In this document: positions 3,157-62,269 of the stretch, one piece after another
Numbering within the stretch: the first letter of the stretch is position 1
Layout: each line of letters begins with the position of its first letter
From: Gonatopus flavifemur
Taxonomy: Eukaryota; Arthropoda; Insecta; Hymenoptera; Dryinidae
NCBI GenBank assembly: GCA_018340375.1
Contig: JAFFJZ010000014.1
Location: 5,704,001-5,768,000 of the forward strand
Direction: 5' to 3'
Length of the DNA: 64,000 bases
Position numbers and translations under genes: made by a program
The notes under the pieces: model-generated
Seen by the model: the letters and a program-made list of their open reading frames with translations, nothing else
Told to the model about the DNA's origin: nothing
Databases searched by the model: none

Positions 3157-3783
3157 CTTTTCCCAACAGCGTGTGCAAAATTTGGTTTCCCAAGCCTGTG
3201 TTGCGTGCCTAAAGTGAGTGATTCCCACACGGCAGCCAGACCAGTGCGGGAAAGCAATAAGCGTGTGGTAAAGTAACTTGTACTATTCCTCATAACTGAT
3301 GACGAATAGTTGACATATCAATGAAGGTGTGGTTGATGAAAATATGTCACGTCAGTTCAATCAACAAAGTTGTAAGAATTGGATGGACTATAGAAACTAT
3401 TATGGCATGAGAAAGCAACTTTCGATCAGCAGTTGAATGTACTACATTGAAGTGGTACATTGTGTAACAAGGACGCAAAGTTTGTGATGTCCGCACGGGC
3501 GTGAAGCTTACCGCCCGAGCTACGCTCGGCGACAAGTCACGCGAGTAGGGGCATCACTAATGTGCACGAGTTACACATACTATTTTTCCTAACAAGGTGC
3601 GCGAACTTCGGTTTTCCAAGCCTGTGTTGCGTGCGCAGAATGACTGCCGTGTGGGACAGTGTTCTGATATTCAGAAAGCTGGGAAATCGCAGCTTGGTCA
3701 CGTGACCACTCTGACGTCACAAACTACCACGCCATTCACTAACACATATAATCGCGCTTGTCGGGGAGTTATTCCCACCACCG

Positions 3784-4284: not shown

Positions 4285-4303
4285 GTATAGCATGCGAAAT
4301 ATA

Positions 4304-6336: not shown

Positions 6337-6338
6337 AT

Positions 6339-6711
6339 ATATGCATTGTTCGGTTCCACTCGGTGAGCGTCGATCGCGGTCGACAAATTGAGAGAGAAGC
6401 AGTATGAATGTTTCTTCGTCTTCTCGTTCTAGCGGTTTCCTGCAAAATATGATATCTCAGTTGCGACGGTATATACGTTCGTCGTCATAGCACCGAGCTG
6501 AAAACACCCGCGTACATTTCGTATCGAATGAAGTTAAATTTCCTGTAAAATAATGAAGAAATGCACCTCATGTTAATTTGAGGTATTCATAATCGAAGAT
6601 GATTTATCATTTACATTTCTGTATGTTTTTTGTATATTCCCTATAATTCGTAACAAATATTAAAATATTTGCATGCGAAGTTTTTGTAATAATGAACTGC
6701 TCGAAATTATG
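6339..6711. repeat. Left arm segment of the composite structure
   Basis: Inverted copy of about 16690-17076, beginning at the 'gttcggttccactcgg' phrase. It starts directly after the rosa element. No coding sequence is seen in either copy; the plus-strand frame 16871-17125 in the right copy is not matched in the left. Confidence 0.8.
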
Positions 6712-7085
6712 TTTTACGGGGCACACGGAGAAAAATGCCGCTCGAAAATATATAACTTTTTCTTATTTTTCTCCAGCAAACCAGGAATGGGAAGGTTTGT
6801 AAAATGGATCTTTGGAAGAAAATACGTAACATTACGAAGAAGAAATAATTGATAGGATTCAAATTTCAAACACCGAACGTTGAATTTTCCAAAGCGCATA
6901 GTAAAATTTGACTATTTAGTGTTTGAAATTTGAATCTCATCCATGATTTTTTCTATATTATTCGTGATCATTCATATATTCATGTAAAAATTCATTTCAC
7001 AAACCCCCCTGTTCCTGGTTCACTGGAGAAAATGAAAACAAGTCTTATCTTTTCAAGCAACATTTTTCTCCGTGAGCAAAAAAGT
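6712..7085. mobile_element. Nested hairpin MITE (left arm copy)
   Basis: A 370-bp palindrome with ends of the type CACACGGAGAAAAATG / CATTTTTCTCCGTG and a short loop near 6895. Its inverted counterpart is at about 15460-15828 in the right arm, so it was in place before the arms were duplicated. Short reading frames in both copies are mirror images and not genes. Confidence 0.75.
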
Positions 7086-7557
7086 AAGTGGAACACAAGT
7101 ACAGCATCATCCCAGTGAACACCCGAAGTCAGTGGTACGTAACACAGGAATCACAAAATTATGTATCATTATTGCATACATATGGCATACTGGTAACATC
7201 AAATGTTATGTTACAGTTCCTTATTTCTATGTGACATAACGGTCACGTATGGAATTAGTCCAGTAAATTGAGTTATAATTGTGATATCGTTTCTCACATT
7301 ATTACGGAAATGAGTATGAAATTGTAACTCAAACGTGATTTTCGTGGTACGTAATTGCTATTTTACGTTATGTGGTTTCAATATAACACCTATGCAAGCG
7401 TATTCCCTGGGATAACATCAGAAATAGTTTGAAGGCAAGGGGCAGAGCACAGCGAAAAAAAAGAAAAGTATGGAAGAAGCTCTTGTGATTGTTGTACCGA
7501 TGCGAAGTACAGTCGAAACAGATGGTTGCAAAAAAACTCTCATCGCGAAATGGGCAT
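7086..7557. repeat. Inner left arm of the composite structure
   Basis: Reverse complement of about 14972-15430. It includes a dyad from 'cccagtgaacac' near 7115 to the ACGTTATGTGG phrase near 7374. No gene. Confidence 0.75.
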
Positions 7558-8283: not shown

Positions 8284-10558
8284 TATCATTTATCCATGTC
8301 ACAACATGGATCATGATAAACGTAAAAATTATCTAAAACAATTAAACTCGAGTAAGGAATCCGACAATCCTAATTTTGCTCAATATATTACTGCAATTGA
8401 CGGCCTCAAGAATGGTTTTGTTTGTACTGTGTTCAAAGAATTATTCGGGAGGGAATTTTGATGCTAAAAAGCATTTGCTCTCCAAAAAGCACTTGGAAAA
8501 GGTAAGTCCCTCTCCAGGAATAGTATCAAAGGTTGAGACAAAAAAACGCAAAATTTATGAAAAAGAGTTTGACGAATTATTGGTGTCTGATGAACGATAT
8601 CATCCTTATTTACAAGCGGTTCCGGGTGAATCGGACTATTTTCATTGTTTAGCATGCTGTCAAACCTATTCAGGTGGATCCCATGAAGTCGATCTTCATT
8701 TCAAGCGATCCAAACATCTGAGTAATGTTGAAAAGTGTGTAGTACAAAGGAATGTTGATCTTAGCGGCTTACCATCAACATCAATTTCCGTAATAACAGA
8801 TTCTGTAACGGATCCCTATGAATTTGCTTGCGACTCTCTTTCAATAGATCCTTTCTCATCGAGAAATCAATGGGCACCGAAACGCGAAAATGTAACTTTC
8901 GCCAAATCTTTTTCAGATGTTCCTGAACAGCATGATGATTCCAAACAGAATGGAGATATAAATTTATTATCCGGGAACGATAACTTATCACTTCCAATGG
9001 CAAGTATTTTGACAAATTCAAACGCTACATTAGATTCTTCTGAAGAGGAAGATTCAATTCATCGTCAAAATATTGCTCGCGCTGAAATCTTAATATCCAC
9101 TTTTATTGCGCAACACAATATATCTACCAAAAATAAAAAAATGTGGATAAAATCACTGGGATAATTGTGAGTAATGTTGCGGTCGTTGAAACGGACAAGT
9201 TGATCCAGGGAATCCGAAACACTCCTTTTGGTATCCATGTAGAAGGTTCAGTGGATATCGGGAATAAAAAGAATTTGGCTGTTTGCGTGCGCTTCATCGA
9301 CGAAGAATCCGGTACACCAATTAGTCAACTGTTGGAAATCATTCAGATGAAAGCAACTGATTGCTCGCATGAGAAGTTATTTGCTACTCTTGAAAAATGC
9401 TTTTGGCATTATGAAATTCCCCTCAGGAATATAAGTTCGTTATCAACAGACAATGAGGCCGTGATGACGGGGGAGAACAATTTGGTTGCCACTTTGCTGA
9501 GAAATAAATGCCCTGCTTTTATTTCCCGTTGTGTATGTCACATCAGTGCATTAGCGGCAATGTGTGCAAGTAAATTCATCCCAAATACGGTTCAAAACCT
9601 TATTCATGATGTAGCGACCTGCTTTCGAAAAAGTGCGAAACGGAATGATATTTTAATTGAGATAGCCAAGGGTAGAGGTATCGTACTGAAACAAATCTTG
9701 TCTTTGTCTGTCACGCGATGGCTCGAAATGCAGCATTGTATTCAGAGAATCGTTGAAGAGTGGGAAACCATTGAAGAAGCTTCATATTGTTGTGCAAGAG
9801 ATGGAAAAAAGGGCACAATCAAGTCTGCGACTTCGACATTAAGGAGACGAAATATGAAAACCGTGGCTACTACTCGCCGTGTCAAAAAATCACCCGCGAC
9901 AGACTTGCTCATGAGCATGAATAATGATGAACTGAAAGCTTACTTTCTTTTTTGGGAAACCGCTCTTCAAGATTTCAATGTATACAATGCTTCATTTCAA
10001 ACCAAAAGCACAAAAATTCAAGACGTGCATCACGATTCGTTGGATCTGATGCAAAAATTCGCTCAAAGATTCATTCGCAAACCTCTTTTAGGAATTCCTG
10101 ATCAGATCTTGCATCTCGATCTGTTCGATGAGAATAATTTGCGACATGATGAAATGCGAATAGATCTTGGAGTAAAATGCGAAAATTTCATTGCTCAATC
10201 CCTTGAAAAAAATGCCTTATTAACGGAAACAATTTTAAAATTGAAAACGAGCGAGGACAAGGACCAGAATCGAATCAATTCCCTTGAAGCCGAGTATAAA
10301 AAACACCTGAATCCTGACGTTGCCGCTATTATCCGGAATAACTGCATTGATTTTTGTCGGACAGCAATTTCTCAATTATTAAAACGACTAAACTTGATGG
10401 CGGATCCCTTTTACCAACATCTTTCTGTCTTCAAAGCAAAATCTGCACTTTACGAATATCGGGACAGATCTTTCGATTCCATGTCTTTCTTTGCAGAGCG
10501 AATAGGTTTCTTTGTGACATCAGTACTTAAGAACAGAGAGGCCTTCGATTATTGTTGA
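8284..10558 (+). pseudogene. hAT-type transposase, decayed, C-terminus missing
   Basis: Three frame segments (8284-8461, about 8440-9164, 9143-10557) together resemble a hAT transposase. The N-terminal parts hold two BED-like zinc-finger remnants: a FDAKKHLLSKKHLEK helix, and CLACC with HFKRSKH about 30 residues on. The long 3' segment carries the VDIGNKKNLAVCVRFID block, the STDNEAVMTG block with the second catalytic Asp, CVCHISALAAMC, and TRWLEMQHCIQRI. The Asp expected at the start of the first block is Val. Sequence between the linker and this block appears deleted, and the C-terminal dimerisation domain is absent after FDYC-stop. It lies inside the composite structure but nothing ties it to that structure's mobility. 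Confidence 0.8.
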
Positions 10559-14971: not shown

Positions 14972-15835
14972 GTGATGCCTATTTCGCGATTGGAGGTTTT
15001 TTGCAACCATCTGTTTCGACTGTACTTCGCATCGTTACAACAATCACAAGAGCTTCTTCCATACTTTTCTTTTTTTTTCGCTGTGCTCTGCCCCTTGCCT
15101 TCAAACTATTTCTGATGTTATCCCAGGGAATACGCTTGCATAGGTGTTATATTGAAACCACATAACGTAAAATAGCAATTACGTACCACGAAAATCACGT
15201 TTGAGTTACAATTTCATACTCATTTCCGTAATAATGTGAGAAACGATATCACAATTATAACTCAATTTACTGGACTAATTCCATACGTGACCGTTATGTC
15301 ACATAGAAATAAGGAACTGTAACATAACATTTGATGTTACCAGTATGCCATATGTATGCAATAATGATACATAATTTTGTGATTCCTGTGTTACGTACCA
15401 CTGACTTCGGGTGTTCACTGGGATGATGCTGTACTTGTGTTCCACTTACTTTTTTGCTCACGGAGAAAAATGTTGCTTGAAAAGATAAGACTTGTTTTCA
15501 TTTTCTCCAGTGAACCAGGAACAGGGGGGTTTGTGAAATGAATTTTTACATGAATATATGAATGATCACGAATAATATAGAAAAAATCATGGATGAGATT
15601 CAAATTTCAAACACTAAATAGTCAAATTTTACTATGCGCTTTGGAAAATTCAACGTTCGGTGTTTGAAATTTGAATCCTATCAATTATTTCTTCTTCGTA
15701 ATGTTACGTATTTTCTTCCAAAGATCCATTTTACAAACCTTCCCATTCCTGGTTTGCTGGAGAAAAATAAGAAAAAGTTATATATTTTCGAGCGGCATTT
15801 TTCTCCGTGTGCCTTGTAAAACAGAATTCATTCGG
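14972..15835. repeat. Right arm of the composite, inner part
   Basis: Inverse of 6712-7557, including the second copy of the nested hairpin MITE. The reading frames here are mirror images of those on the left. Confidence 0.8.
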
Positions 15836-16689
15836 ATCAATTGATAAGACAAATCTATGATCACTCCCTTGTTGAATCCGGATCAACTCGGATAAAACTT
15901 TATGAATCATGTTGAAATGCATATATGAAATTGCATAGGTTCATTTATCTTCGTGGAATTGAATAAGAAGCGCTATAGGTGCCAGATTAAATACCTTCAA
16001 ATCGTATGAATGTTATAGATTCTCATCAAATCTCGTAGATATTGTTTCAAATGCACATGTTGCTTCTCATACCACTGATAAAACACGATGGAAATCCATG
16101 CGATTCATCCATGCGGTTTTATGGAAATTTTATATAAGGGTGAAAGTAATTCAGCTCACGATTTTCAGAGAAGCAATTCGAAATGTTCAGGTTATTCATT
16201 AACAAAAATTTACTCTACAAAAACTCAATTATTTCATTAAAAATAAAAAAAAACATCAGCGTTTTGAGGAATTGAACGTAAGAGAGCGACACAACACTGA
16301 AAGCCTACGCGTCACCACTGAGCCACACATGGATCTTGAAATCGGATAACATTTTGGTTTATATAAACGCTAATAATGATCGAATTATTGAAAAGTTCAA
16401 ATTTTGTCATTTCCGTGACATAAACCCGTCATCCGTTATCGTAATTGTCTCTTCCTATCGAGGGAAAAATATTCAGTGGAATGAAGAAGTTGAAATATAT
16501 TTCAAATCATATGTGCAATTTCAATTAAGTGGAATTCAACTATTTATCAATAAATGGAATTTCTATTCGTTTATTGAATGTGAAATTTTCGTGGGGTAAT
16601 AAATGAATGAATCAATGAATATGTAATTGAATAGCACACCATTTTGACTTGAAGTATTTTTTCTTGTTTTAATGGAACTTTTTACTTCC
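15836..16689. other. Segment present only in the right arm
   Basis: About 855 bp that interrupts the right arm relative to the left (left junction near 6711). It holds the degenerate repeat related to 12180-12490 and a tRNA-like segment at 16266-16335. The 87-codon frame at 16336-16599 has no recognisable motif. Confidence 0.55.
16266..16335 (-). repeat. tRNA-like sequence, possible SINE head
   Basis: On the minus strand TGGCTCAGTGGT matches a pol III A box, and CGTTCAATTCC about 40 nt later matches a B box. The stem pairing expected of a working tRNA is not evident, so a tRNA pseudogene or SINE head is more likely. Confidence 0.4.
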
Positions 16690-17275
16690 GAGAAATTCAT
16701 TATTACAAAAACTTCGCATGCAAATATTTTGATACATGTCACGAATTATAGGGAATATCCAAAAAACATACAGAAATATAAATGATAAATGATCTTCGAT
16801 TATGAATACCTCAAATTAATATAAGGTACATTTCTTCATCATTGTACAGGAAATTCAACTTCATTCGATTTTGAATGTACGCGGGTGTTTTCAGCTCGTT
16901 GCTATGACGACGAAAGTATATATCATCGCAACTGAGATATCATATTTTGCAGCAGAATCGCTAAAACGAGAAGACAAAGAAACATTCATCCTGTTTCTCT
17001 CCCAATTTGTCGATCACGATCGACGCTTACCGAGTGGAACCGAACAATGTATATATATATCTCGCATACTGTACGGTAGTGGGAATAACTCACCGACGAG
17101 CGCGATTATATGTGTTAGTGAATGACGTAGTAGTTTGTGACGTCAGAGTGGTCACGTGACCAAGCTGCGATTTCCCAGCTTTCTGAATATCGGAACACTG
17201 GTGTGGTAATCATTCACTTTGCGCACGCAACACAGGCTTGGAAAATCGAATTTTGCACACGTTGTTGGGAAAAAG
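16690..17275. repeat. Right arm of the composite, outer part
   Basis: Inverse of 6339-6711 and, farther out, of 3582-3783. At about 17076-17087 it preserves the uninterrupted sequence into which the CATATATG MITE and the rosa element inserted on the left. Confidence 0.8.
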
Positions 17276-18679: not shown

Positions 18680-19064
18680 CAGGGGGGTGCAACTCACCTA
18701 ATCACCTCCAAATGTTTCGCGAAACGTTTTGTCACCACAGTAAACTTCACTTGAAGTCCGTGAACGGCGCTGTCTGTAGCTAAGTCAAAATCACGTGATG
18801 TTTTTTTTGTACACTACGTACGTGATACAAGTGTCGTCATTATCATATTTGGTTATGTGACATATTCAAGAATTGTATGTATATATCAACACCATTATTG
18901 ATATGATTTGTCAAGCGATTTCGAATGCAAAATTAGGCGCCGAAAAATTATCGTATCACGTGACTTTTTCTGATAGTACAATCAGCGTCTCTTGCGGACA
19001 GTTTGGGAAATATCGAATGGTGACAAAACGTTACGTATAGTTTTTATCGAGTTGCACCCCCCTG
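18680..19064 (+). mobile_element. 385-bp hAT MITE, copy 1
   Basis: Ends CAGGGGGGTGCAACTC and GAGTTGCACCCCCCTG form the TIRs. An exact 8-bp direct duplication CCCAGTGG flanks it (18672-18679, 19065-19072), the signature of hAT insertion. A second copy of identical length lies inverted at 20756-21140. The interior is non-coding and contains CACGTGA phrases. Confidence 0.92.
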
Positions 19065-20755: not shown

Positions 20756-21140
20756 CAGGGGGGTGCAACTCGATAAAAACTATACGTAACGTTTTGTCAC
20801 CATTCGATATTTCCCAAACTGTCCGCAAGAGACGCTGATTGTACTATCAGAAAAAGTCACGTGATACGATAATTTTTCGGCGCCTAATTTTGCATTTGAA
20901 ATCGCTTGACAAATCATATCAATAATGGTGTTGATATATACATACAATTCTTGAATATGTCACATAACCAAATATGATAATGACGACACTTGTATCACGT
21001 ACGTAGTGTACAAAAAAAACATCACGTGATTTTGACTCAGCTACAGACAGCGTCGTTCACGGACTTCAAGTGAAGTTCACTGTGGTGACAAAACGTTTCG
21101 CGAAACATTTGAAGGTGATTAGTTGAGTTGCACCCCCCTG
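20756..21140 (-). mobile_element. 385-bp hAT MITE, copy 2 (inverted)
   Basis: Same TIRs and length as the element at 18680-19064, opposite orientation. Flanking octamers are ACCAGGAC (20748-20755) and ACCAGAAC (21141-21148), seven of eight identical. Sequence identity to copy 1 is very high over the whole length, so both moved recently from one source. Confidence 0.92.
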
Positions 21141-29440: not shown

Positions 29441-30055
29441 TACTGTGGACAAAAAATAGTGAGACTTTGTTCATAATTTCAAAAATCTCAATTTATCTTC
29501 CCAAATCTATTCCGTCCCCCTCAGAGTAATCACCCCTGGCCCCAATACATTTGTGCCAACGTTTTTTTCGATCCTCGAAACAGTTGTTGGAGTCATCTTC
29601 CGGGATAGCCTTCAATGCGCGTAGCGATTCACGTTCAATGTCTTCAATTGACTCAAAACGGTTTCCCCGGAGCGATCGTTTGAGTTTGCTGAATAGCCAG
29701 GAGTCACGCGGAGCTAAATCAGGCGAATACGGTGGTTGCAGCATGATATTGGTTGGAAATTTGGCGAAAAACTCACGAAGAATCAATGCAGTATGCGAAG
29801 GTGCGTTATCGTGGTGCAAAAACCAAAAGTTGTCGGCCCATAATCCCGGTCTCTTTTCACGAATAGCTTCACGCAAACGACGCATAACACTCAAATAGTA
29901 TTCCTTGTTGACAGTTTGGCCGTCCGAAAGGAATTCGGAGTGCGCCACACCTCGATAATCGAAGGAAACTGTCAACATAACCTTGATTTTTGACCTGCTT
30001 TGACGTGGTTTTTTCGGCTTCGGCTTGCCTTTCGCACGATCTCCATCGGGTCAGG
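29441..30055 (-). pseudogene. Mariner (DD34D) transposase, 5'-truncated
   Basis: The minus-strand frame is open from about 30052 to the stop at 29493 and encodes the catalytic domain of a mariner: FDYRG with the first Asp, HHDNAPSHT with the second, and PYSPDLAPRDSWLF with the third, 34 residues between the last two. A RWHKC motif near the C-terminus also fits. The N-terminal helix-turn-helix half is missing: homology ends where the neighbouring long-TIR element begins (about 30056). The 3' end is retained, with TACTGTGGACAAAAAATAGT at 29441-29460 as the likely terminal repeat. All three Asp survive but the gene cannot work without its DNA-binding part. Confidence 0.85.
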
Positions 30056-30786
30056 GTTTTTCATAACCTCAAAAAAACTGCTTTTTCAAACTATATGACT
30101 AACAATCACTCATATTAAACCCCTCAACCCTTTAAAATCACAACACAACAACTCCATATCACGTGTGACCCATAACTCTATAATAATATAACCCCATAAC
30201 TCCATTGCTCCCATATCAAATGAAATATATTTCAGGCAATTCTCAACAATATAAATTTGAACTAACAATCAGGATACGTTCGAACAATGAAATAAAACGT
30301 AATTACCTCATAACCCTATAACCCCGTGACATTATAACCCTATAAACGTATCACCCCATTGTCTTTAGATCAAATGAAAACAGTCTATCTGGGGCAATTT
30401 GTATCAATAAAAATTTTCACTGATGTTCAATATACATTTGAACATTGAAGTAAAAGGTCATAACCCTGTGACACCACTACAAATGGGATTCCTAAAACTG
30501 CGTGTGTCTACATCCAGGGCACCTCCTCACGATGACGGCGTGCAACGAAGTGGGCCCGTTATCCAGGTGAGTTCCTGGATTGCGGCTGAGATGCCGTCAT
30601 GGCAGGCACACGCAAGTGGCTTACGATGCAGAGGAATCTCGGAGCCTGAGTATCGGTGGTTGGTAAGGATGTGGAAGCGGGCCCTCAAGCGTTGTCATCA
30701 AGAGACCGTAGTTCTACATTGGTGGAATATGATGCTACAAGGAAACAACCCCAAAAATTTGTGCAATCTCCTGATTGTCAAGTAAA

Positions 30787-32475
30787 TCATGATCTATTTT
30801 GTTATATTTGTTCAAAATTTGGAGGTACATCTTTGCGGATAACAATTGATGAATCTATTTGTAAATTGTATGGAGAAGTTTTTGATTCGCAAATTGATAA
30901 GAATAATGGCTGGCATCCATCTGTTATTCGCAATGCTTGTAAGAAGATGTTATTGGAATGGAAGGTGCAGAAAACTAGAGATGTCATAAAGTTCTCCACT
31001 CCCACAATTTGGAAATATCCTAGTAGTTCAAAAGAATGCTACTTTCGCATGAATGACATTAAAGGTCTCACCATCAAGACTAAGAGTCAAAGTGTGTATA
31101 ATTCTGTTGAATTGGTCACCGCACCCGTGCCGTACCAACAAACTGATTCTGATATTGAATTCAATAAAAATACTATGGAAATTGAAGAATTGGAAACTTC
31201 AAGCGATATCAACAACGATAACAGCAGCAGTGAATCAGAGTATGCAGTAGATACGGAGGAACCAAAGATTCCCTGGTTAGTGTCGCAGTTGGAATGAAAC
31301 GACCTTGTTAGAGACCTGGGCTCACCGAAAGATAGTTCTGAGTTTTTGGCTTCATTTTTAAAAAAGAACATCTTTTGGAACTCACAACGAAAGTTTCATT
31401 TCATTCCAATCATGATTTTGAATTCCGAAAGTATTTCGTCAAAGATGAAAAATCATCAATAGTATTTTGTAAGGATATTGACGGTTTGATAAATGTGTCC
31501 CAACCAAATGCTTACCAAGCTTCATAATGGCGACTTCTCATCGATTCTTCAAAACTAAGTATTGAAGCTGTTCTGCTACATAATACAAATGTTTTTGCAC
31601 CAATACCAATCGCTTACTCAACCGTTATGAACAAAAAGTACGAGAATATGGAAATACTTCCACAAAAAAATCAGTATCAAAAACATTTATGGCAAATTTG
31701 TGGTGATTTGAAAATAATAACGATGTTTCTTGGACAACAGTCGAGCTTTACAAAATATCCTTGCTATTTGTGTTTGTGGGATAGCAGAGACAGACAAAAT
31801 CATGATAATAGGCTGAAACAGTGATCGGTGTGATCAACCTTCAACCCTGGTTCAAACAATATCATCAATGGAACTCTCGTGGATCCATCAAAGATTCTCA
31901 TTCCTCCTTTGCATATAAAACTTGGTCTCGTGAAACAATTCGTGGAAGCTTTGGACAAAACAGGGGAAACGTTTGAATATTCATCTTCTAGATCCCCTAA
32001 TCTTCCTGATCCCAAGTTGAAAGCAGGAGTATTTGATAGACCTAAGATTCGTAAAATGTTCAGAGACAAAAATTTTGTCCAAAAAATGAATAAACTCGAT
32101 AAAGCAGCTTGGGTGAGTTTTAAAGATGTGTGTTACAACTTTTTGGGAAATAACAAGAGTCCAAAGTATCAACAAATTGTTACCAAGATGGTTGAAGACT
32201 TCAGAAATTTAGGATGCTTGATGAATGTGAGATTACACTTTTTGGATGCTTATCTTGATGAATTCCCAAAGAATCTTGGAGATTTTAGTGAAGAGCAGGG
32301 AGGACGCTTTCATCAAGATATAAAAGTTATGGAAAATCGTTATCAGAGAGGGTGGGATGTTAATATGATGACTGACTCCTGTTGGAGTATAAAACGAGGG
32401 ACACCAAACAGTGATCGAAAGCGAAAAGCATTACGTAGATCGTTTGATGAAAGGAGAACTCGCTACAGTAGCTGA
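30787..32475 (+). pseudogene. Decayed transposase-like gene with N-terminal Cys-rich domain
   Basis: The first part (frame to 31294) has CYICSKFGG, RNACKKMLLEW and a later KECYFRMNDIKG, a spaced Cys pattern that looks zinc-binding, then an acidic Ser/Asp/Glu-rich linker. After a stop at 31295-31297 a NDLVRDLGSPKD block continues, then stops accumulate. From about 31530 another frame reads LLIDSSKLSIEAV, WQICGDLKIITMFLGQQ, PCYLCLWDSRDRQNH (stop at 31822), ILIPPLHIKLGLVKQF, EEQGGRFHQDI and MMTDSCWSIKRG. I recall this order from a large family of uncharacterised arthropod proteins. LLIDSS and CGDLK are candidate catalytic acids. Several stops and shifts make it a pseudogene, probably of the enclosing element's transposase. 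Confidence 0.65.
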
Positions 32476-36023: not shown

Positions 36024-39000
36024 AAAAAATTTTACCTCCCCAATCTTCCTGAAATTTTACTGGAATGTAGTACTAGCGAGTGACTTTTAATCCTGTGAAG
36101 GATTTTGCTCTGGTACCTCTGGTTATCAAACTACAGGGGTCAAAAATTCACAGATTTCGTTTAATCAGCTCTTTTGAAGATATAATTTCTCAAATTACAT
36201 TTTTTTGAAAAATCATTCTCGATCTTGCTTTTTGTAGCTTTCTTTCTGTTCTTTACAATGGAGTAATCTGTTTTTGTGAGAAAAAATTTTTTCCAACAAA
36301 TTTAACGAGTTCAAAGTTCTTTTGGCATTTTTTTTCAATTTCGACAATTTTGAAAATTTTTTAAGTTAGCTCATCTGAAAGCTGGATTCTTCAGGTTTGG
36401 AATCGTGTCGGAGATATTGTGGGAAAAAAATTTTATCTGGCATTGACAATGGTTTGAAGCGCGCGTGTCGCATATTCTTATTATCTCCTGATACGGTTCG
36501 TCATACTATTGACGCGGAATACAAGTGAAACGAACTGTTTTCCAATAAAATATGATTTTCTAATCATGCCAATGATTTCATACAATTTTACCGTACCCTT
36601 ATATCATCAAACTTCATCAATAACAGCTCTTGAAATTATGGAACATGATAATGAATAAATATACATAATATAATAAATATGAAATAATTCTGCTCTCTAG
36701 AAAATACACTGGCTTCTTTCCTGCATAACCCACACACTTCTGCATCGGGGAGAATGTTGGGAAACCTCTGTTGTAGACTCGGAGTTCTGAAATCTACCAT
36801 TTGAATTTGTGATCGATTTTTTTCAATTCGATGAACAATTGGAATTCTGTAAACATCTTCGATACATCAAACGTACATATCGACGATGTTCATTTGTTTT
36901 TCCTTGTTTATACGCATACTTCATACAACTTGACGTCACACGAAAAATCGCATCGCATGACAGGATCTTGAATTGTAAGTAAAATTGTTTCAATTTTAAT
37001 ATAATTCGCAAATCGTGATGAAAATCAATTCTTTTTTTTCCAAAGGTTTGATTGTGTTTGTTTGTAGGCAATTCAATTATTAGATTGAATACAGCATTAT
37101 TGACACAACATTTCTTGATTCTCAAGAATGTCTGCAAATGATCAACTTCCGTTGATCGTTGTTGTAACCCTCTGTACAAAATCCATCACAAATTCAAATC
37201 AAGAGATTTGGGAACTATTTCTCCAAATCTACATGAAAAGTTTCCCAGTATCCTCCCCGGCGCCAAAGTGTGTGGGTTATGTAGAAAAGAAGCTGCGGCT
37301 TGTTCTGGAGAGAAGCCTCCAATTGATGCACAAGATGATTCGTTCGGTCATGTTTGACTCGAGGTATTGATATCATATTTTCAATTGCTAAAAGACAATT
37401 TGTACATCACTGAAAATGAATAATACATTTATGCGAATTACAATTAATTACTACGATATGTTTCACATAATTCAGGATGACAATGATGATGGTATTGATG
37501 AACATGGTAATGACGATGATTACCACCCATTAGAAAAGAAACCGAAAGATTGTAATATTGAGGAACATGAATCGGCTACGGAGGTTCTTGATCAAATTAA
37601 GCAGGAATATAAAACTTCCTCGAGTGCTTCGGAAAAAGTATTACTCCTCACGCTTGCGCCAAAATCCTGGGGTCGGAAGAGACTTGCTGACGAGTTTGAG
37701 ACTTCTGAACGCCAAGCTAGGAAAGCTATCGAACTGGTAAAAGAAAATGGTATTTTAACGTCACCATCTCCAAGGAAGGGTCATGCTTCAGCTTTTGAAA
37801 TAAAGAATAAGATCATGAGTTTCTATAATGATGACGAAAATAGTCGTATAATGCCGGGCATGGAAGATTTTGTTTCAGTTAAAAAAGAAGACGGATCACG
37901 AGAGCACGTACAAAAGAGATTGATTCTGTGCAATCTTTCTGAATTATATTTTGCTTTCAAAGATCAGAATCCTACTGTTCCGATCAGTCTCTCTACATTC
38001 TCGCAGCTTAGACCTCGTGCTTGCGTACTCGCTGGTCTAGTGGAACGCATACTGTTTGCGTTTGTGTCCATCACGAGAATGTCAATTTGATGCTTGATGC
38101 GATAGATATTCAAAAATTGACATCCGGTACGAATAATCCAATCGCCACTTATCATGATGCTCTTGAAATGTTTTTATGTCAGAATCTATGTGTCGAATGT
38201 TATCTCAATGAATGTTTATTATGTCCTGGCAAAGAGGGTTTCCAGAATTTTTCACAAACAGTTTTCGAAGACAATTGTATCGGAAAACTTGAATATCAAA
38301 TTTGGCAACAGGCTGATCGTAGCACTTTGCGTACTGAAGTTGCAGATGCGGAAGATTTTTTAGAAGAACTTTCTCGCTGTCTTTCGAAACTCAAATTCCA
38401 TTCATTCGTTGCGAAACAACAGTCATCTTTTCTGAGAAACTTGAAGGATAATTTACAAGAAGGAGAATTTTTAGTTTTATGCGATTTCGCGGGAAATTAT
38501 GCGTTTGTAGCCCAGAATGCTGCACAGGGTTTCCACTGGAACAACGACCAAACGACAATTTTCACCACTGTCATTTATTACAAACAAGGAAACGAACTCA
38601 GTCTTCGGAGCATTGCTATTCTATCGGATAATTTGAATCACGATACAATCGCTGTGTACGAATTCCAAAAAATTATAATAGCGTACCTGAAAGAGCATTT
38701 TCAACTAAGAAAAATTTTCTATTTTACGGATGGAGCATCTCAGCACTTCAAGAATAGATATAATTTCAAAAATCTTTACTATCACTACAAAGATTTTGGA
38801 ATAGCAGCTGAATGGCATTTCCATGCAACCGCTCATGGAAAAGGGCCTTGTGACGGTATCGGTGGTAATCTGAAACGACTAGCAGCTCGAGCGAGTCTTC
38901 AAGCGAGGTCTAAGCAGCAAATTTTAAATCCTGATGCGCTCCACGAATGGGCAAAGAGAAATCTATCAGAAACTGTTGTTTTTTTTTAGTTCGAAGACAA

Positions 39001-39900
39001 AACATGAAATCACTGCTAAAAAGCTCAAAACTCGCTTCGAAACTGCAAAAACAATCCCAGGAACGCTCAAATATCATTGTTTCATCCCCACTTCGAACAT
39101 GACTCTGCCTTTACGGGTATTTTCGTCATCATTGAATGTAGATGTTTTCCCAAAGATGAAAATTAAAAAAACAATTGATACGAATAAGGAATTGCGCTAA
39201 ATATATTGCTTCGAGCAGAATTATTACATATTTATTATATTATGTGTATTTATTCATGATTAGGTTTCATAATTTCAAAAGCTGTTATTGATGAAGTTTG
39301 ATGATATAAGGGTACGGTAAAATTGTATGAAATCATTGGCATGATTAGAAAATCATATTTCATTGAAAAACAGTTCGTTTCACTTGTGTTCCGCGTCAAT
39401 GGCATGACGAACCGTATCAGGAGATAATAAGAATATATCCATTGTCAATGCCAGATAAAATTTTTTTCCCACAATATCTCCGACACGATTTCAAACCTGA
39501 AGAATCCAGCTTCCAGATCAGCTAACTTAAAAAATTTTCAAAATTGTCGAAATTGAAAAAAAATGCCAAAAGAACTTTGAACTCGTTAAATTTGTTGGAA
39601 AAAATTTTTTCTCACAAAAAAAGATTACTCTATTGTGAAGAACAGAAAGAAAGCTACAAAAAGCAATATCGAAAATGATTTTTTAAAAAAATGTAATTTG
39701 AGAAATCATATCTTCAAAAGAGCTGATTAAACGAAATCTGTGAATTTTTGACCCCTGTAGTTTGATAATCAGAGGTACCAGAGCAAAATCCTTTATAGGA
39801 TTCAAAGTCACTAACTAGTACTACATTTCAGTGAAATTTCAGAAAAATTGGGGAGGTAAAAATTTTTGAGCTGTCACGCTTGAGAAATTTTGCCCCATGT
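36024..39900 (+). mobile_element. Long-TIR DDE-like element, nearly intact
   Basis: Inverted repeats of about 640 bp lie at 36024-36670 and 39225-39869, with high similarity. A second copy of the right arm at 55017-55735 continues, like this one, to a TTTTGCCCCATGT terminus. This shows that the true end is near 39900 and that the left arm has lost its outermost 30 or so bases. The element carries one gene broken by two small frameshifts. No target duplication can be defined because of the truncated left end. Confidence 0.75.
37150..39200 (+). pseudogene. DDE-like transposase gene with zinc-finger exon, two frameshifts
   Basis: A first segment (37165-37360) reads CCNPLYKIHHKF...VCGLCRKE, a Cys4-type zinc-finger candidate; a donor-like GAG|GTATTG at about 37363 and an acceptor TTCAG at about 37474 suggest an intron. 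Then an acidic DDNDDG stretch, a WGRKRLADEFETS helix-turn-helix-like region, and SLSTFSQLRPRA. A one-base loss near 38036 moves the frame to SGTHTVCVCVHH. Candidate catalytic residues follow: LVLCDFAGNY, YFTDGASQHFKN and AEWHFHATAHGKG. A run of eight T at about 38979-38986 shifts the frame again to TAKKLKTRFETAKT and a stop near 39198. Only two small lesions, plus a possible stop before the intron, separate it from a full gene of about 600 codons. I recall the family as uncharacterised, repeated arthropod proteins. Confidence 0.65.
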
Positions 39901-44600: not shown

Positions 44601-45440
44601 TTATTGCTTTTCAAAGAAATATATATACGAGTCTTTAGCATTGCGTGGCCAATGTCGCTCTTCAACTTGCAGATCATGAATAAATATCCACTCTGTACCT
44701 TTACTTCGTAACATGCATGTGAAATTATCTTCAGAAATATTTTTACCCTGATGAAAAACAACAGCTATAACTTTATAAAAGTGTTGTGCAATTATAATTT
44801 TTGAAGTTGGTACTGCTTCAATGTTTATATTTTCTACCTTTGTTGCTTCAACATTATTGTGATTAAACATCATCAATTGCACAATTACATGTTGTTCTGA
44901 CGCTGTTATAAATGATTTCTCAGTTTTATGCAAGTTATTACAATTGTCACAAGAATCTTCGAAAATTTTCGATGTTGAAGAATTGAACTTGAATATTTCT
45001 TGAAACTCAAATGATTTTTGTGAAATTGGAGGTAGCCGAAGACGTGTAACACAATTTGTACCAACAATATTTTCGGTATATTCACATTATTTGAATTCAA
45101 AACTTATTTGGTGCTTCACTAAATTTTTAATAGCCATTGAATTCTCGCAAATAGAAGCGATGAATTCTCCTGCATCTTGTGAGTGATTATGCGAGTATTG
45201 TGGACCTGCAAGCTGTTTTAAAGCTATGATATCAAGGTTTTTTTGCGAATTGTAGTTCTGAATTGGAATATTTATGATGTCATTGGGTTCAGATAAAAGT
45301 AATTATTTTGTCTTAGAAGCACAGTACAATGAACACTGCATTACTGCATTCAAATAAGAAGAAACACCGTCAACAATAGGAAGACCCATTACGTTGAACG
45401 CGTGAATTTCTGTTGATTTTTCATCAATATTTTGGCCCCT
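44601..45440 (-). pseudogene. Decayed ubiquitin-specific protease (C19)-like sequence
   Basis: One minus-strand frame reads a USP-like plan in order. LPIVDGVSSYLNAVMQCSLYC stands where the Cys box belongs, with Ser in place of the nucleophile. SQDAGEF matches the QDAGEF box. A CDNCNN pair follows as finger remnant, then AVVFHQGKNISEDNFTCML where the His box GHYT should be, then EWIFIHDLQV and a WPRNAKDSYIYFF tail. Two TAA stops interrupt it, near 45315 and 45090. The family removes ubiquitin from proteins; this copy lacks Cys and His and cannot. Related domains occur in repeated, transposon-linked genes, and I infer that origin here from the repeat context. Confidence 0.6.
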
Positions 45441-48666: not shown

Positions 48667-51062
48667 CACTACCGGTCAAAAGTATTCGAGCACCTCTCAA
48701 AAAAACGCGAAATTTTCAAAGTTCCATATCTCAGCCGGAAATTATCGTACATTCAAAAATGAAAAACTGTTTCGAAGGGTGAAGTGTGCTCTTCCAAGAA
48801 ATCTTAGTCTCACTTACCTGACGGAATTATTGAGGCACATTTAATTTCCCCCACTTTTCTCATCTTTGGTGGAACACCTTGCAGTCTCGAGATCATCAAT
48901 CAATTTAAATATTCAACAAAGAATAATCGTCAGATCAGTCTACAGTGGTGGAATTCTTTTGTCCATGCAAAACGATGCATTCATCGTGAAAAACTATCGA
49001 TATTCATTTATCGAAACAAACAAATGATAAATTTCATATGCAACTGCTTCATGCAAAACAATGCGTTAATCGTGATAAATACAGGCTAGCCTCCTATAAC
49101 GCGACTGTTTTATCCAATTATAATTCTACGGGTTATCAGTTCTGCCTAAAACCCGTGAAACAAGTCAAGAAACACTGTACTGTGATAGTGGCATTACGTG
49201 AAGAGGGATATCCTTTAAGAGAAATTTCGACGAGAGTCGGTGTAACTAATTCGACCGTATTGTATACCCTGGAGCGATACCAAAGTACAAAATCGAATTC
49301 CAATCGGGCTCGATCTAGCAGGTCGCGAGTTACTTCGAAAGAAGAAGATAAGTTTTTGCGTATTCAAAGTAAACGACTAAGGATGAGAACATCACCTGAC
49401 TTAAAACAAGAACTGAATGCAACTCGTGATTCCCCCTTGTCTGTCTCAACCGTTCAACGTCGTTTGCGAGATTCTGGCCTCATGGGACGTATTGCTGCGC
49501 GAAAACCTTTATTACGTAAGCAAAACAAAATTAAACGTTTGAATTGGGCCCGCGCACATTTAAGTTGGGGCATAGAAGAGTGGTCGAGAGTACTATTTAC
49601 GGACGAATCAAAATTTGAATTATTTGGAACGAAACGTCGAGTTTACGTCCGTCGAATGAAATGTGAACGAATGCTTAATCAATGTGTAACACCCACAGTG
49701 AAACACGGGGGAAGATCAATCATGATATGGGGGTGTTTTGGAGGACTAAAAGTAGGTGATTCATTCAAAATTGAAGGTATTTTGAAGAAAGAGGGATATC
49801 ATAGATCCTAAAAAACCACCTAATACCTTCTGGAAAGAGGTTAATTGGAAACGGGTTCATTCTGCGACAGGATAACGATCCCAAGCATACTTCCAAATTG
49901 TGCACGGGATACATACGGAAGAAGGAAGACGCGCATCAGTTGCAGATTATGGACTGGCCTGCTCAATCCCCAGACCTCAATCCCATAGAACTGTTGTGGG
50001 ATCAACTCGATACAGATGTGAGGAAAATGAGACTAACGAACAACCAGGAACTATGGCAATATTTGCAAACATGTTGGAGTCAGATATCTCCTATGACATT
50101 GGAGAAATTATTATTGAGGATGCCGAAAGTCTGCAAGGCGGTGGTAAAAGCAAGAGGTGGCTATTTCGAAGAATCTGCAATTTGAAATCAGAATTTGAAT
50201 TGATTTTGAATTTTAATGTTGATTGTATACATATGTACATATTTTGATTTAGAAATATAATTTGAATAAGAACAATTTGATTTCCCAATTTTATGATAAG
50301 CATGCTCGACTGTTATAATTTATCCTACACAGTTTATTTTGAAATTTCCGGGATTTCATATTCACAATCACTGGCATTCTGACCACAAAATTCACGTCAC
50401 TATGGAGTTCCCAACAAAACATAATTATAACATGGATGTACAACAAAGAAAAGAAATGTTCACCACTGTAGACTCCTCTAACGATTATTCTTTGTTGAAT
50501 ATTTGAATTGATTGATGATCTCGAGACTGCAAGATATTCCACCAAGGATGAGAAAAGTGGCGAAGATTAAATATGCCTCAATAATTCCCGAAATTGTTAT
50601 GCATGTAGAGTACGTTGGAACGAAACTTTTTTCCCCTCAACAGTTTTTGACTGGAACGATACTTTCAGAGTTACAGCACTTTGTCTGAAAATCCAGTTTT
50701 TTCACAAAAAAGGACATAACTCTAAAAGGAATGATCCGAGGGAGAAAAATAAGAGATCATTTTGAAGCTGAATCCATGCTCTATTGAATGTATGATCTCA
50801 TTTTCCCAGGAGGAAATCACCCAAAAACATGCAAAGGTTTGAAACGTCGGAAAAAAAATCGAAAAAAGTTGTAAGTTCAACCGAACACGGTTAATAACGA
50901 ACTTCAGTCAGTTGAGTGAGACTAAGATTTCTTGAAAGAGCACACTTCACCCTTCGAAACGGTTCTTTATTTTTGAATGTACGATAATTTCCGGCTGAGA
51001 TATGAAACTTTGAAAATTTCGTGTTTTCTCGAGAGGTGCTCGAATACTTTTGACCGGTAGTG
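48667..51062 (+). mobile_element. Tc1-like element with long TIRs
   Basis: Ends CACTACCGGTCAAAAGTATT and inverse, flanked by TA (48665-48666, 51063-51064); 2396 bp. The TIR runs from 48667 to about 48960 on the left. On the right it is split: 50905-51062, then about 300 bp with no left counterpart (50600-50905), then 50460-50600. So the right arm gained, or the left lost, about 300 bp. Confidence 0.88.
49038..50185 (+). pseudogene. Tc1-like transposase, DD38E spacing, one-base frameshift
   Basis: The frame opens at 49038; homology begins around KPVKQVKKHCTVIVALREEG with a helix-turn-helix (ISTRVGVTNSTVLYTLERY), a second DNA-binding helix set, and a first catalytic Asp in LFTDESKFELFG, followed by GGRSIMIWGCF. 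One base is missing near 49803; the next frame continues through RQDNDPKHTSK with the second Asp and SPDLNPIELLW with the Glu. I count 38 residues between them, against 34 in classic Tc1. The frame ends at 50183-50185. Apart from the single loss the gene is open, so inactivation is recent. Confidence 0.88.
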
Positions 51063-52719: not shown

Positions 52720-53602
52720 CCCGAAATCGTTTCACTCGGATCCGTCCAAGTTCGCGTCGTCTTTCGAATCGTCGCATTGTTTCATCCCAATGTACCAGGA
52801 GTGGTGTTTCGCGCCGTGGAATGCATCGCAAATGTATTTTGTTACACTTCGTTTTTACCAGAGGTACCACATCTATTTGTCGCAATCGTTGACAGCTGAG
52901 GATTTCGTAGCAAGGATGAACTTCTGCATATGGGCCCAGAGCAAAATTGAGGAAGATCCTACTTTCTTTCAACGCGTTATGCTCTCTGACGAGGCAACAT
53001 TTCAAAGTGTAGGAATCGTGAATAGGCACAATAGTCATAATTGGAGTGCTCAGAACCCTCACTGGGTTCGTATGGTAGACCATCAGCACCGTTGGAGTGT
53101 CAACGTTTGATGTGGAATTGTAGATTCCAAAATCATAGGACCATATTTTTTTGAAGGAACTCTTAGTGGCGTGGAATATCTTTGCTTCTTACAGCATGAA
53201 CTTCCTGCTCTGATGGAAGACTTAAGCCTCGACCTAAGATTAACAATGTGGTTTCAACAGGATGGAGCACCTCCTCATTGCGCGCGGAATGTACGGAATT
53301 TTTTGGATCAGCAATTCCCAGGGAAGTGGATTGGCCGTGGAGGACCTGTTCGATGGCCACCGAGATCGCCAGACTTGACGTCGCCGGATTTTTTTTTGTG
53401 GGGTTACATAAAAGATGTTGTATTCCGCGAACTTCCTACAACACGCGATGACATGAAAATTCGAAGAAAGAAAGCATGCGCAGCAATAACACCTGCTGTG
53501 TTACAAACAACTGAGCCCAACTTTCATAAAAGAATTAGACTTTGTCATCAGCAAAACAGTGGTCATTTTGAACATCTTGTGAAGTCTCGAAGGCAAACCT
53601 AG
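52720..53602 (+). pseudogene. rosa-type (DD41D) transposase, dead copy
   Basis: From about 52860 the frame reads HIYLSQSLTAEDFVARMNFC, LSDEATFQSVG with the first Asp, and WSVNV, where the Trp codon expected next is TGA (53108-53110). In the same frame it goes on through QQDGAPPHCARN (second Asp), a GKWIGRGGPVRWP linker and TSPDFFLWGYIKD (third Asp), again with 41 residues between. The N-terminal DNA-binding part is missing or shuffled among frames at 52720-52860. It is clearly related to, but diverged from, the intact copy at 4760-5824. Confidence 0.85.
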
Positions 53603-54671: not shown

Positions 54672-55012
54672 GATCTGATCCTTAGATCCGGAGATTTTTT
54701 CAATCCCACACTATTCTCTAAGTCAGATCACGGGGTATCCCTGGAAAAAAATGAATCTCATTCAGCTTCCTCCGTTGTGGAGTTATAGCGATTCAAACTT
54801 GTTGAATTCTACTTGGCTGGAATGCAAAAAATTTCAAACCGCTATAACTCCACAACGAAGGAAGCTAAATGAGATTCCTTTTCTTCCAGGGATACCCCAT
54901 GATCTGACTCAGTGAATGGTGTTGGATTCAAAAGTCATAAATATGGTACTTCCGAGGTATTTGGATTTTTCAAAAAATTGAAAAATGCTCATATCTCCGG
55001 ATCTAAGGATCA
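54672..55012. mobile_element. 341-bp fold-back MITE
   Basis: Arms begin ATCTGATCCTTAGATCCGGA and end with the exact inverse; a second matching block carries GGGGTATCCCTGG and GTTGTGGAGTTATAGCG. It adjoins the truncated arm at 55017. Confidence 0.85.
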
Positions 55013-55016
55013 GATG

Positions 55017-55735
55017 CTTCGAGCAGAGTTATTCCATCTTCATTATATTATGTGTATTTATTCATGATTATGTTTTATAAATTCAAAAGCTGTTATTGAT
55101 AAAGTTTGATAATATAACGGTACGGTAAAATTGTATGAAATCATTGGCATGATCGAAAAATCATATTTGATTGAAAAACAGTTCGTTTCACTTGTATTCC
55201 ACGTCAACGGTATGACGAACCGTATCAGAACGTTCAGTAGCTAATAGGAATATGCGACACGCGCGCTTCAAACCGTTGCGAATGCCAGATAAAATTCTCT
55301 TCCCATAATTTCTCCTACATGATTCTAAAGCTGAAGAATCCAGCTTTCAGATGAGCTAGCTCAAAAAATTTTCAAAATTGTCGAAATTGAAAAAAAAATG
55401 CGAAAATAACTTTAAACTCGCTAAATTTGTTGGAAAAAATTTTTTCTTACAAAAACAGATTACGCCATTGTAAAGAACAGAGAAAAAGCTACGAAAAACA
55501 ATATCGAAAATAATTTGATAAAAAAATGTAATTCAAGAAATTATATCTTCAAAAGAGCTTATTAAACGAAATCTGTGTTTTGGACCCCTGTAGTTTGATA
55601 ACCAGAGGTACCAGAGCAAAATCCTTTATAGGATTAAAAGTCACTACCTAGTACTACATTTCAGTGGAATTTCCGAAAGATTGAGGAGGTAAACATTTTT
55701 GAGCTGGTACGCTCGAGAAATTTTGCCCCATGTAA
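55017..55735. repeat. Solo right arm of the 36.0-39.9-kb element
   Basis: Colinear with 39208-39900 in the same orientation, from GCTTCGAGCAGA to TTTTGCCCCATGT, with moderate divergence. No transposase or left arm accompanies it. Confidence 0.88.
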
Positions 55736-59786: not shown

Positions 59787-60203
59787 CCAGGTGTGTAAGT
59801 ATGAGACCGGAATTTGCCCATAGGTGGCGTTAGATGTCGATGCAGTTACCGACACATCACGTCAGCGGTGTCTTGTTATTGTATTGATGTCCGACAAAGA
59901 TTTCCAACTCACAATAACACGAGTTTCATTCAGTAGCATTAGTTTATGAGAGATAAACATGTCGAGTTTTGTGCCAACAAATTACGATTTGCGGACAGCA
60001 CTACTTTTCTGTTTTCATCTGAAGAAAACCCCAGCCGAATCGTATCGAATGCTTGTGGAGGCGTTTGGTGAGCATGCTCTCGGTAAAACACAGTGTTCCG
60101 AGTGGTTCAAACGGGTCAAAAGTGGCGATTTTGACGTCAGGAACGAAGAACGTGGAAGACCACCGAAAAAGTTTGAAGACACTGACCTACACACGGTGCT
60201 CTA
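59787..60203 (+). pseudogene. Mariner 5' stub: TIR and helix-turn-helix domain only
   Basis: CCAGGTGTGTAAGTATGAGA at 59787, preceded by TA, has the form of a mariner terminal repeat. The ATG at 59959 opens an 81-codon frame with RTALLFCFHLKKTPAESYRM, a GKTQCSEWFKRVKSGDFDV helix-turn-helix and NEERGRPPKKF, the usual N-terminal mariner plan. It ends at TAG exactly where the palindrome at 60192 begins. The catalytic domain and 3' end are missing, so the palindrome may have arisen in or replaced them. It is a different mariner type from the one at 29.4 kb. Confidence 0.85.
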
Positions 60204-62269
60204 GAAGCAGCGATAGGTATGACAAAAATGTGTCAACAAACGGAATGCGGGGTCATATTCGGCGTGATTTACAGATTGAAAATCCGTTTGAAATGAAATC
60301 CTAACTGTAGCCGTTCTCCAGATATCGATCAATAAATTTTCGTTAATTTTATATTGGATCTGATAAGGTAAGAAACACGTCTTTATCATATCATAGTGGT
60401 TAATTCCAGCTCAAAATGCCCGTGTGAACATGTTTTGGGGAAGATTGGATATATAAATCATTGTAAATTATTATTTCGTTATCTTGTTTATATGCGATAG
60501 GTGAAAAAAAGGGTGAATAAACAGTAGTCAGAAAAAAAATGCAGATACTAGTATGTATTTTATTCGTGCTGTATTTTCTTGAAGTACTCTGCCATTAAAA
60601 GATTCAATTCATCAGTTGATGAATGAATAAACAATATTCGAAATGATAAAACCCGAGTCGAAATACAAATACGGTTTTGGAACTCATTATCAGGTTCGAA
60701 TTGAATTGCCTTCGTACTGGTTTAGTCCACTTTATGCAACTTCTATATCGACATTTGATAAATATAAATCTTCAAAACTATATTCAGACCACTCAACCCA
60801 CAATAATTCAAAGCTTAGCTAGTCCAGGAAGTACAAAATAACTAATTAGTCATACTCCTAATTGCTTGTCAATAATAATGATTTCAAACACACTGAAGAA
60901 ATGTGTAGTGCTGATAACAGTGGTATAGAGATTGAAACCAGAAGTTGTGCTGTGATACCTACATTGTCACCATTAGATCTAGTTCCTACTGGTAAAATAA
61001 TATCATTGTAATTTGGCATCTTTTGCCAGGGTCTCCTGTAATTCATTTTCTTATGCTCCAAATGTGTGATACGACACGTTGCGCATATGCTCAATGGAAA
61101 CCTTGAATCCTGAAGACTAAAGGCAGGAGTGTGTAAAGTTTTAATAAGCTGCTCATGTTTGTCTGTTATGAGAAATTGTTCTGGCCTTTTTTTCCGGAAC
61201 GAAATTTTCTTACCACGAGGTGCACACACTTTTTTTCTATTGTCTTCATGTGAACATTTGAAATGATTCATTGTCACTTCATCTGTTGAATGTGTTGAGC
61301 ATATATTCACTACATAAATCCCTATACGGAAACAAGAGGAATCTAGTTTGTTGTCAAAATAACACACTATCAACCCGTTGTAGATACGCTTCAGTTATCT
61401 TTGTTATCTTAAATTGAGTTGCTCTTTTACTAAAATGCAAAAAATCTATGGTTAGAATGACAATACGATTGATTTCAAACCGAAATTTAGGTCACAATGT
61501 AGGTATCACAGCACAACTTCTGGTTTTCATCTCTATACCACTGTTATCAGCACTACACATTTCTTCAGTGTGTTTGAAATCATTATTATTGACAAGCAAT
61601 TAGGAGTATGACTAATTAGTTATTTTGTACTTCCTGGACTAGCTAAGCTTTGAATTATTGTGGGTTGAGTGGTCTGAATATAGTTTTGAAGATTTATATT
61701 TATCAAATGTCGATATAGAAGTTGCATAAAGTGGACTAAACCAGTACGAAGGCAATTCAATTCGAACCTGATAATGAGTTCCAAAACCGTATTTGTATTT
61801 CGACTCGGGTTTTATCATTTCGAATATTGTTTATTTATTCATCAACTGATGAATTGAATATTTCAATGGCAGAGTACTTCAAGAAAATACAGCACGAATA
61901 AAATACATACTAGTATCTGCATTTTTTTTCTGACTACTGTCTATTCACCCTTTTTTTCACCTATCGCATATAAACAAGATAACGAAATAATAATTTACAA
62001 TGATTTATATATCCAATCTTCCCCAAAACATGTTCACACGGGCATTTTGAGCTGGAATTAACCACTATGATATGATAAAGACGTGTTTCTTGCCTTATCA
62101 GATCCAATATAAAATTAACAAAAATGTATTGATCGATATCTGGAGAACGGCTACAGTTAGGATTTCATTTCAAACGGATTTTCAATCTGTAAATTACGCC
62201 GAATATGACCCCGTATCCCGTTTGTTGACACATTTTTGTCATACCGATCGCTGCTTCTAGAGCACCGTG
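60192..62269. repeat. 2.1-kb palindrome with a gene-bearing loop
   Basis: Arms 60192-60970 and 61490-62269 are inverted copies with few differences, ending in CACGGTGCTCTAGAAGCAGC and inverse. The loop of about 520 bp carries a coding fragment on the minus strand. No direct duplication is evident at the ends. Confidence 0.88.
60975..61290 (-). pseudogene. Fragment of a Cys-rich, transposon-associated gene
   Basis: Minus-strand frame in the loop: MNHFKCSHEDNRKKVCAPRG, a lysine-rich stretch, then DSRFPLSICATCRI and MPNYNDIILP. The spaced Cys pairs look zinc-binding, except that the partner of VCAP is Arg. I recall similar N-terminal domains in repeated, uncharacterised arthropod and hydra proteins; the general plan resembles the start of the gene at 30787. 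The frame continues into the arm as noise, so only one exon-sized piece was captured. Confidence 0.45.

What the first reader, a model, noticed from the sequence alone, without database searches (positions are those of the whole stretch)
36024..39900. Nearly intact element of an unnamed DDE-like family
Long TIRs enclose a gene with a Cys4 finger, a helix-turn-helix-like region and three candidate acids (CDFAGNY, TDGASQHFKN, AEWHFHATAHGKG), inactivated by only two small frameshifts. The protein family is common in arthropod databases yet, as far as I know, labelled uncharacterised. Pairing it with TIRs of about 640 bp argues it is a transposase.
Basis: partly seen in the sequence, partly recalled or inferred. 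Interest (0 to 1): 0.75.

Follow-up and report, generated by a model that had tools for sequence, protein, structure and literature searches.

The report
Broken jumping gene with long repeats
This is a decayed jumping gene, probably from a wasp or ant relative, whose enzyme belongs to a large and mostly unlabelled family of predicted DNA-cutting transposases; it may well be a member of an already named kind (Sola), though that could not be tested here.

The parts
36024..36695 (+). Left terminal inverted repeat, outermost ~29 bases missing
36696..36825 (-). Inverted, decayed copy of exon 1 (75.9% identical over 116 columns) next to the inner edge of the left arm; junction at a shared GAGCAG by my reading
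37154..37342 (+). Exon 1: N-terminal zinc finger (CC..H..C..C); start region and exon end damaged
   Evidence: P0121 E 1.9e-8; P0188 E 3.9e-4
37392..38090 (+). Exon 2, first open frame: helix-turn-helix-like region and MPG..D.VSV / QKRL block; homology 37512-38036
   Evidence: HTH hits all below cut-off
38012..38989 (+). Exon 2, second open frame: Cys/His-rich cluster and RNase H-like catalytic core
38483..38485 (+). Codon of first catalytic Asp (CDFAGNY)
   Evidence: D in 62 of 62
38492..38494 (+). Gly codon where 59 of 62 sequences have Glu
38729..38731 (+). Codon of second catalytic Asp (TDGA)
   Evidence: D in 62 of 62
38852..38854 (+). Codon of third catalytic Asp (CDGIGG), near the start of a helix in the model
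   Evidence: D in 61 of 62; spacing 40 in 60 of 62
38928..39200 (+). Exon 2, third open frame: C-terminal segment (homology from about 38955-38970) and stop codon
39207..39896 (+). Right terminal inverted repeat with outer end GCCCC at 39896
55015..55729 (+). Lone arm of the same family, in right-arm orientation, about 90% identical

Best explanation
A decayed, formerly autonomous cut-and-paste DNA transposon. Its single gene encoded a transposase with an N-terminal zinc finger and a helix-turn-helix region (end recognition, inferred), a second Cys/His cluster, and an RNase H-like core with a D-D-40-D triad that would hold two metal ions, cut at the ends of the long inverted repeats and join them to a target. 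Shown from sequence: arms, gene, conservation. Predicted: the fold. Inferred: chemistry, end binding, excision mode, target duplication. This copy is dead. Which superfamily it belongs to is left to the first two rivals, which are placements rather than alternatives; Sola (perhaps Sola2) is the more likely.
Against: No complete copy with both ends and a target duplication was seen; the left end is truncated. TIRs of relatives could not be checked. The lone arm stops almost exactly at the arm's inner edge, as if the arm could be a unit of its own. Foldseek's own matches are weak: one at E <= 0.001 for each model, with low TM-scores.
Confidence: 0.9

Rival explanations
1. Placement: it is a member of the named Sola superfamily (perhaps Sola2), so the family is not unnamed; its proteins only lack labels.
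For: Sola: DDD transposases, most elements 2-9 kb, TIRs 11-1124 bp (PMC10741241 passage); here DDD, 3.87 kb, 690 bp. Sola2 is abundant in Cotesia congregata (PMC7822920 passage) and Sola in Leptopilina boulardi (PMC6035795 passage); Leptopilina heterotoma (59%) and Cotesia (48-51%) proteins are among the named relatives.
Against: No Sola sequence could be compared. 4-bp TSD not readable. Amoebal Sola2 elements have TIRs of only 12-21 bp (PMC3627910 passage). The fit rests on general features that other superfamilies could share.
Confidence: 0.55
2. Placement: a superfamily-level D-D-40-D transposase lineage of animals that no transposon classification has named.
For: No Pfam family at cut-off in four window pieces and five relatives, no NCBIfam hit in five proteins, no PDB sequence match up to E 10. 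C/DxxH motif of hAT, MuDR, P, Kolobok and Dada absent (0 of 104).
Against: Repbase not held; the features fit Sola; so common a family is unlikely to have escaped Repbase.
Confidence: 0.25
3. Chance sandwich: two inverted copies of an independent ~690-bp repeat happen to flank a transposase-like gene.
For: A lone arm exists at 55015-55729, ending within a few bases of the arm's inner edge.
Against: The two arms resemble each other more (94.8%) than either resembles the lone one (89.7, 89.9%); the coding region ends 6-12 bases from the arm; the protein has a transposase-like predicted fold.
Confidence: 0.06
4. A domesticated host gene rather than an element.
For: The protein family is widely conserved with invariant residues.
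Against: This copy is broken; relatives form large clusters at 90% identity.
Confidence: 0.02

Closest known systems
Sola superfamily (Sola1/2/3)
   Same: DDD transposase, TIRs of 11-1124 bp, most elements 2-9 kb (PMC10741241 passage); reported abundant in Cotesia congregata and Leptopilina boulardi
   Different: Sequence similarity and 4-bp TSD not tested; amoebal Sola2 elements have short TIRs of 12-21 bp
Retroviral integrases (ASV, PFV)
   Different: Third residue D, not E (integrase E is recalled), spacing 40; no PDB sequence match; flanked by long TIRs; other N-terminal domains
Tc1/mariner (Mos1, Metnase)
   Different: No mariner Pfam hit; arms far longer than the ~30 bp given for plant Tc1/mariner
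DUF7869 (PF25273)
   Same: Similarity below cut-off in members of the second family: 7 of 40 at E <= 0.01, best E 1.5e-5, 25.2 bits against 26
   Different: Not seen in the four window pieces or five close relatives

Membership tests
DDE/D transposases with RNase H-like fold | RNase H-like core | tested here: met
DDE/D transposases with RNase H-like fold | Three conserved acids in order, third at the helix after the fifth strand | tested here: met
   D158, D240, D281 of the window frame: 62, 62, 61 of 62; D281 in helix 279-297; in P0188 D566 lies two residues before helix 568-582
DDE/D transposases with RNase H-like fold | Flanking terminal inverted repeats | tested here: met
   this copy only
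DDE/D transposases with RNase H-like fold | Target site duplication of fixed length | tested here: inconclusive
   Left end truncated, lone arm has one end only; both complete ends are followed by ATGT, two cases only
Sola | DDD (not DDE) catalytic triad | tested here: met
   Third acid D in 102 of 104 and 39 of 40 in the second family; by conservation and model only
Sola | TIR 11-1124 bp, most elements 2-9 kb | tested here: met
   690 bp (right arm), 3.87 kb; ranges from PMC10741241 passage
Sola | 4-bp target site duplication | tested here: inconclusive
   No copy with two ends in the window
Sola | Sequence similarity to Sola transposases | not testable with these tools
   Repbase not held; founding paper not held
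hAT, MuDR, P, Kolobok, Dada group | C/DxxH motif between second and third acid | tested here: not met
   0 of 104 in A1, 2 of 62 in A2, 1 of 40 in A3; motif from PMC10045372 passage
Tc1/mariner | Recognisable by mariner/Tc Pfam models | tested here: inconclusive
   No such hit. Control on window ORFs: 29493-30050 and 48990-49808 do hit above cut-off, but 53111-53599, which looks like a transposase of that kind by eye, hits nothing, so a miss is not proof

The most novel reading that the evidence does not exclude
One animal-wide superfamily of D-D-40-D transposons, from wasps to rotifers, sea cucumbers, a limpet and a fish, sharing core, Cys/His-rich block and a C-terminal beta-rich module in many members, that has no curated Pfam model of its own and no name in any transposon classification.
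Probability: 0.2. Interest if true: 0.65.

Novelty: new member of a known kind. Interest (0 to 1): 0.42.

Why it matters
Hundreds of animal proteins without a functional name (503, 1215 and 291 hits at E <= 1e-3, overlapping in part) can be read as D-D-40-D transposases. That would help to clean gene sets of wasps and ants, and would give Pfam a missing model. The corrected triad says which residues to change in a test.

Tried and rejected
E of AEWHF as third acid: rejected (E 93, Q 8, K 2, D 1 of 104 in A1; E 58 of 62 in A2; E 17 of 40 in A3; against D 102, 61 and 39). Viral origin: two protein scans of IMG/VR found no relative and an end-sequence pattern found none. Prokaryotic relatives: one scan of GTDB contigs with A1 found none; the scan starts from short patterns and is not sensitive to distant forms. 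No PDB relative by sequence. The BFVD search gave RNase H-like matches, some named transposase in giant viruses, all with low TM-scores. More copies of the 15-base terminus in the window: besides the two exact ones, 19 sites with 3 or 4 mismatches; shuffles give 14.1 sites with up to 4; none credible. Literature searches on Cc8L18.2 and DUF7869 found no paper, HGKGA one unrelated paper, a six-term combination none; HGKG with other terms listed ten papers without that word. 'DD40D' occurs in eight papers, three of them on insect mobilomes, mariner or Tc1 by title (listing only). Other superfamilies (RAG/Transib, piggyBac, Academ, Zator and so on) were not individually compared; their absence from the VIA tables proves nothing. 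Alignments are my selections: A1 holds 104 and A2 61 relatives chosen from the rows listed, A3 40 of the 120 rows listed of 291.

Full report
What is there. The window holds two long inverted arms, 36024-36695 and 39213-39867, 621 of 655 aligned bases identical (94.8%, 17 gap columns). A third copy of the arm lies alone at 55015-55729, about 90% identical to both. The right arm and the lone arm agree for a further 29 bases beyond 39867 (26 of 29 by my count), up to ...GAAATTTTGCCCC at 39896 and 55729. The left arm lacks this end and abuts a tandem repeat of period 181-182, while the right end abuts a different repeat of period 157. So the left end is truncated, and no target duplication can be read. 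Both complete ends are followed by ATGT; with two cases this may be chance, part of the element or a target preference.

The gene. tblastn with relatives gives exon 1, a CC..H..C..C finger (P0121 at 37160-37342, E 1.9e-8; P0188 at 37154-37297, E 3.9e-4), and exon 2 in three frames: 37512-38036, 38036-38986, and from about 38955-38970 to the stop at 39198-39200. In addition, by my reading of the three-frame translation, a stop lies before the likely exon 1 donor and no start codon is in frame with the finger; and a glycine stands where 59 of 62 sequences have glutamate. Between the left arm and exon 1 lies an inverted, decayed piece of exon 1 (75.9% identical over 116 columns) that meets the arm at a shared GAGCAG. 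I read it as the trace of an old rearrangement; the arms are far more alike than this piece, which suggests homogenisation of the arms (inference).

Relatives. The core frame finds 503 proteins at E <= 1e-3 among 1270 candidates. Of the 120 listed, the closest with a name are from Cyphomyrmex, Leptopilina, Trachymyrmex and Cotesia, 50-61% identical; the two best rows have no name. The host is therefore probably a hymenopteran (inference). A longer relative finds 1215. Clusters at 90% identity hold up to 65 members in Cotesia glomerata and up to 112 in a source without a name, as expected of an amplified element; these are database counts, not mapped copies. Many of the longer relatives carry an extra C-terminal beta-rich module, with sub-threshold Tudor/Agenet hits in one of five scanned. 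P0003, P0006, P0009 and P0012 (ants and Cotesia) end before it, as does the window copy.

Second family. An alignment of 40 of them matches A1 with hhalign probability 100, E 3e-108, 27% identity over 552 columns, including the upstream Cys/His block. Its triad is D in 40, 40 and 39 of 40, with spacing 40 in 26, 41 in 11 and another value in 3. The typed core biases which members were found, but the comparison is between real sequences. Seven of 40 touch DUF7869 at E <= 0.01, below its cut-off in the cases whose scores I saw, and one carries a Ulp1-type protease.

What it is called. No Pfam family reached cut-off in four window pieces or five relatives, no NCBIfam hit in five proteins, no PDB sequence match. 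[quoted passage not shown] The description of Sola as having DDD transposases, 4-bp TSDs, TIRs of 11-1124 bp and mostly 2-9 kb (PMC10741241, passage) fits in the three features that could be tested. Sola2 elements are abundant in Cotesia congregata (PMC7822920, one passage), and Sola is abundant in Leptopilina boulardi (PMC6035795, passage). Against this, the amoebal Sola2 elements in print have short TIRs (PMC3627910, passage). I could not compare sequences: Repbase is not held, and the founding paper is not held. So I put Sola at 0.55 and an unnamed superfamily at 0.25.

Mechanism. Most likely the transposase bound the long arms through finger and helix-turn-helix, paired them, cut with a two-metal D-D-D site and joined the ends to a target. 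Fold and residues rest on prediction and conservation; binding, cutting order and target duplication are inferred. The helix-turn-helix itself rests on the relatives' predicted helices and sub-threshold Pfam hits. This copy cannot make the full protein. Whether relatives still move it or others was not tested.

Noticed in passing
54673-55015: A 343-bp hairpin-like repeat (107-bp arms at 86%, outer 23-bp arms at 100%) abuts the inner edge of the lone arm at 55015; why the lone arm stops exactly there is unexplained.
   Followed up: partly
36696-36825 and 37173-37315: Inverted, ~76% identical copy of the zinc-finger exon next to the left arm.
   Followed up: partly
6705-7557 / 14975-15828, 6334-6709 / 16683-17059, 3583-3783 / 17074-17274: Nested long inverted repeats (87-99% identical); an ORF with a DUF4371 hit below cut-off lies inside at 9137-10558.
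   Followed up: no
4299-4663 / 5976-6340: Inverted arms of 365 bp (95%) around a 378-residue ORF with a DUF4817 hit: a TIR element with a mariner-like gene.
   Followed up: no
60192-60971 / 61490-62269, 18680-19064 / 20756-21140, 248-886 / 1820-2474: Further inverted repeat pairs of 385-780 bp at 95-98% identity, candidate TIR or foldback elements.
   Followed up: no
44601-45086 (-): Open frame with a ubiquitin hydrolase (UCH) Pfam hit, E 4.7e-7, amid repeats.
   Followed up: no
30650-32475: Two open frames of 215 and 213 residues without Pfam hit at E 0.01.
   Followed up: no
P0317 (database protein): A member of the second family fused to a Ulp1/C48 protease domain, E 8.8e-12.
   Followed up: no
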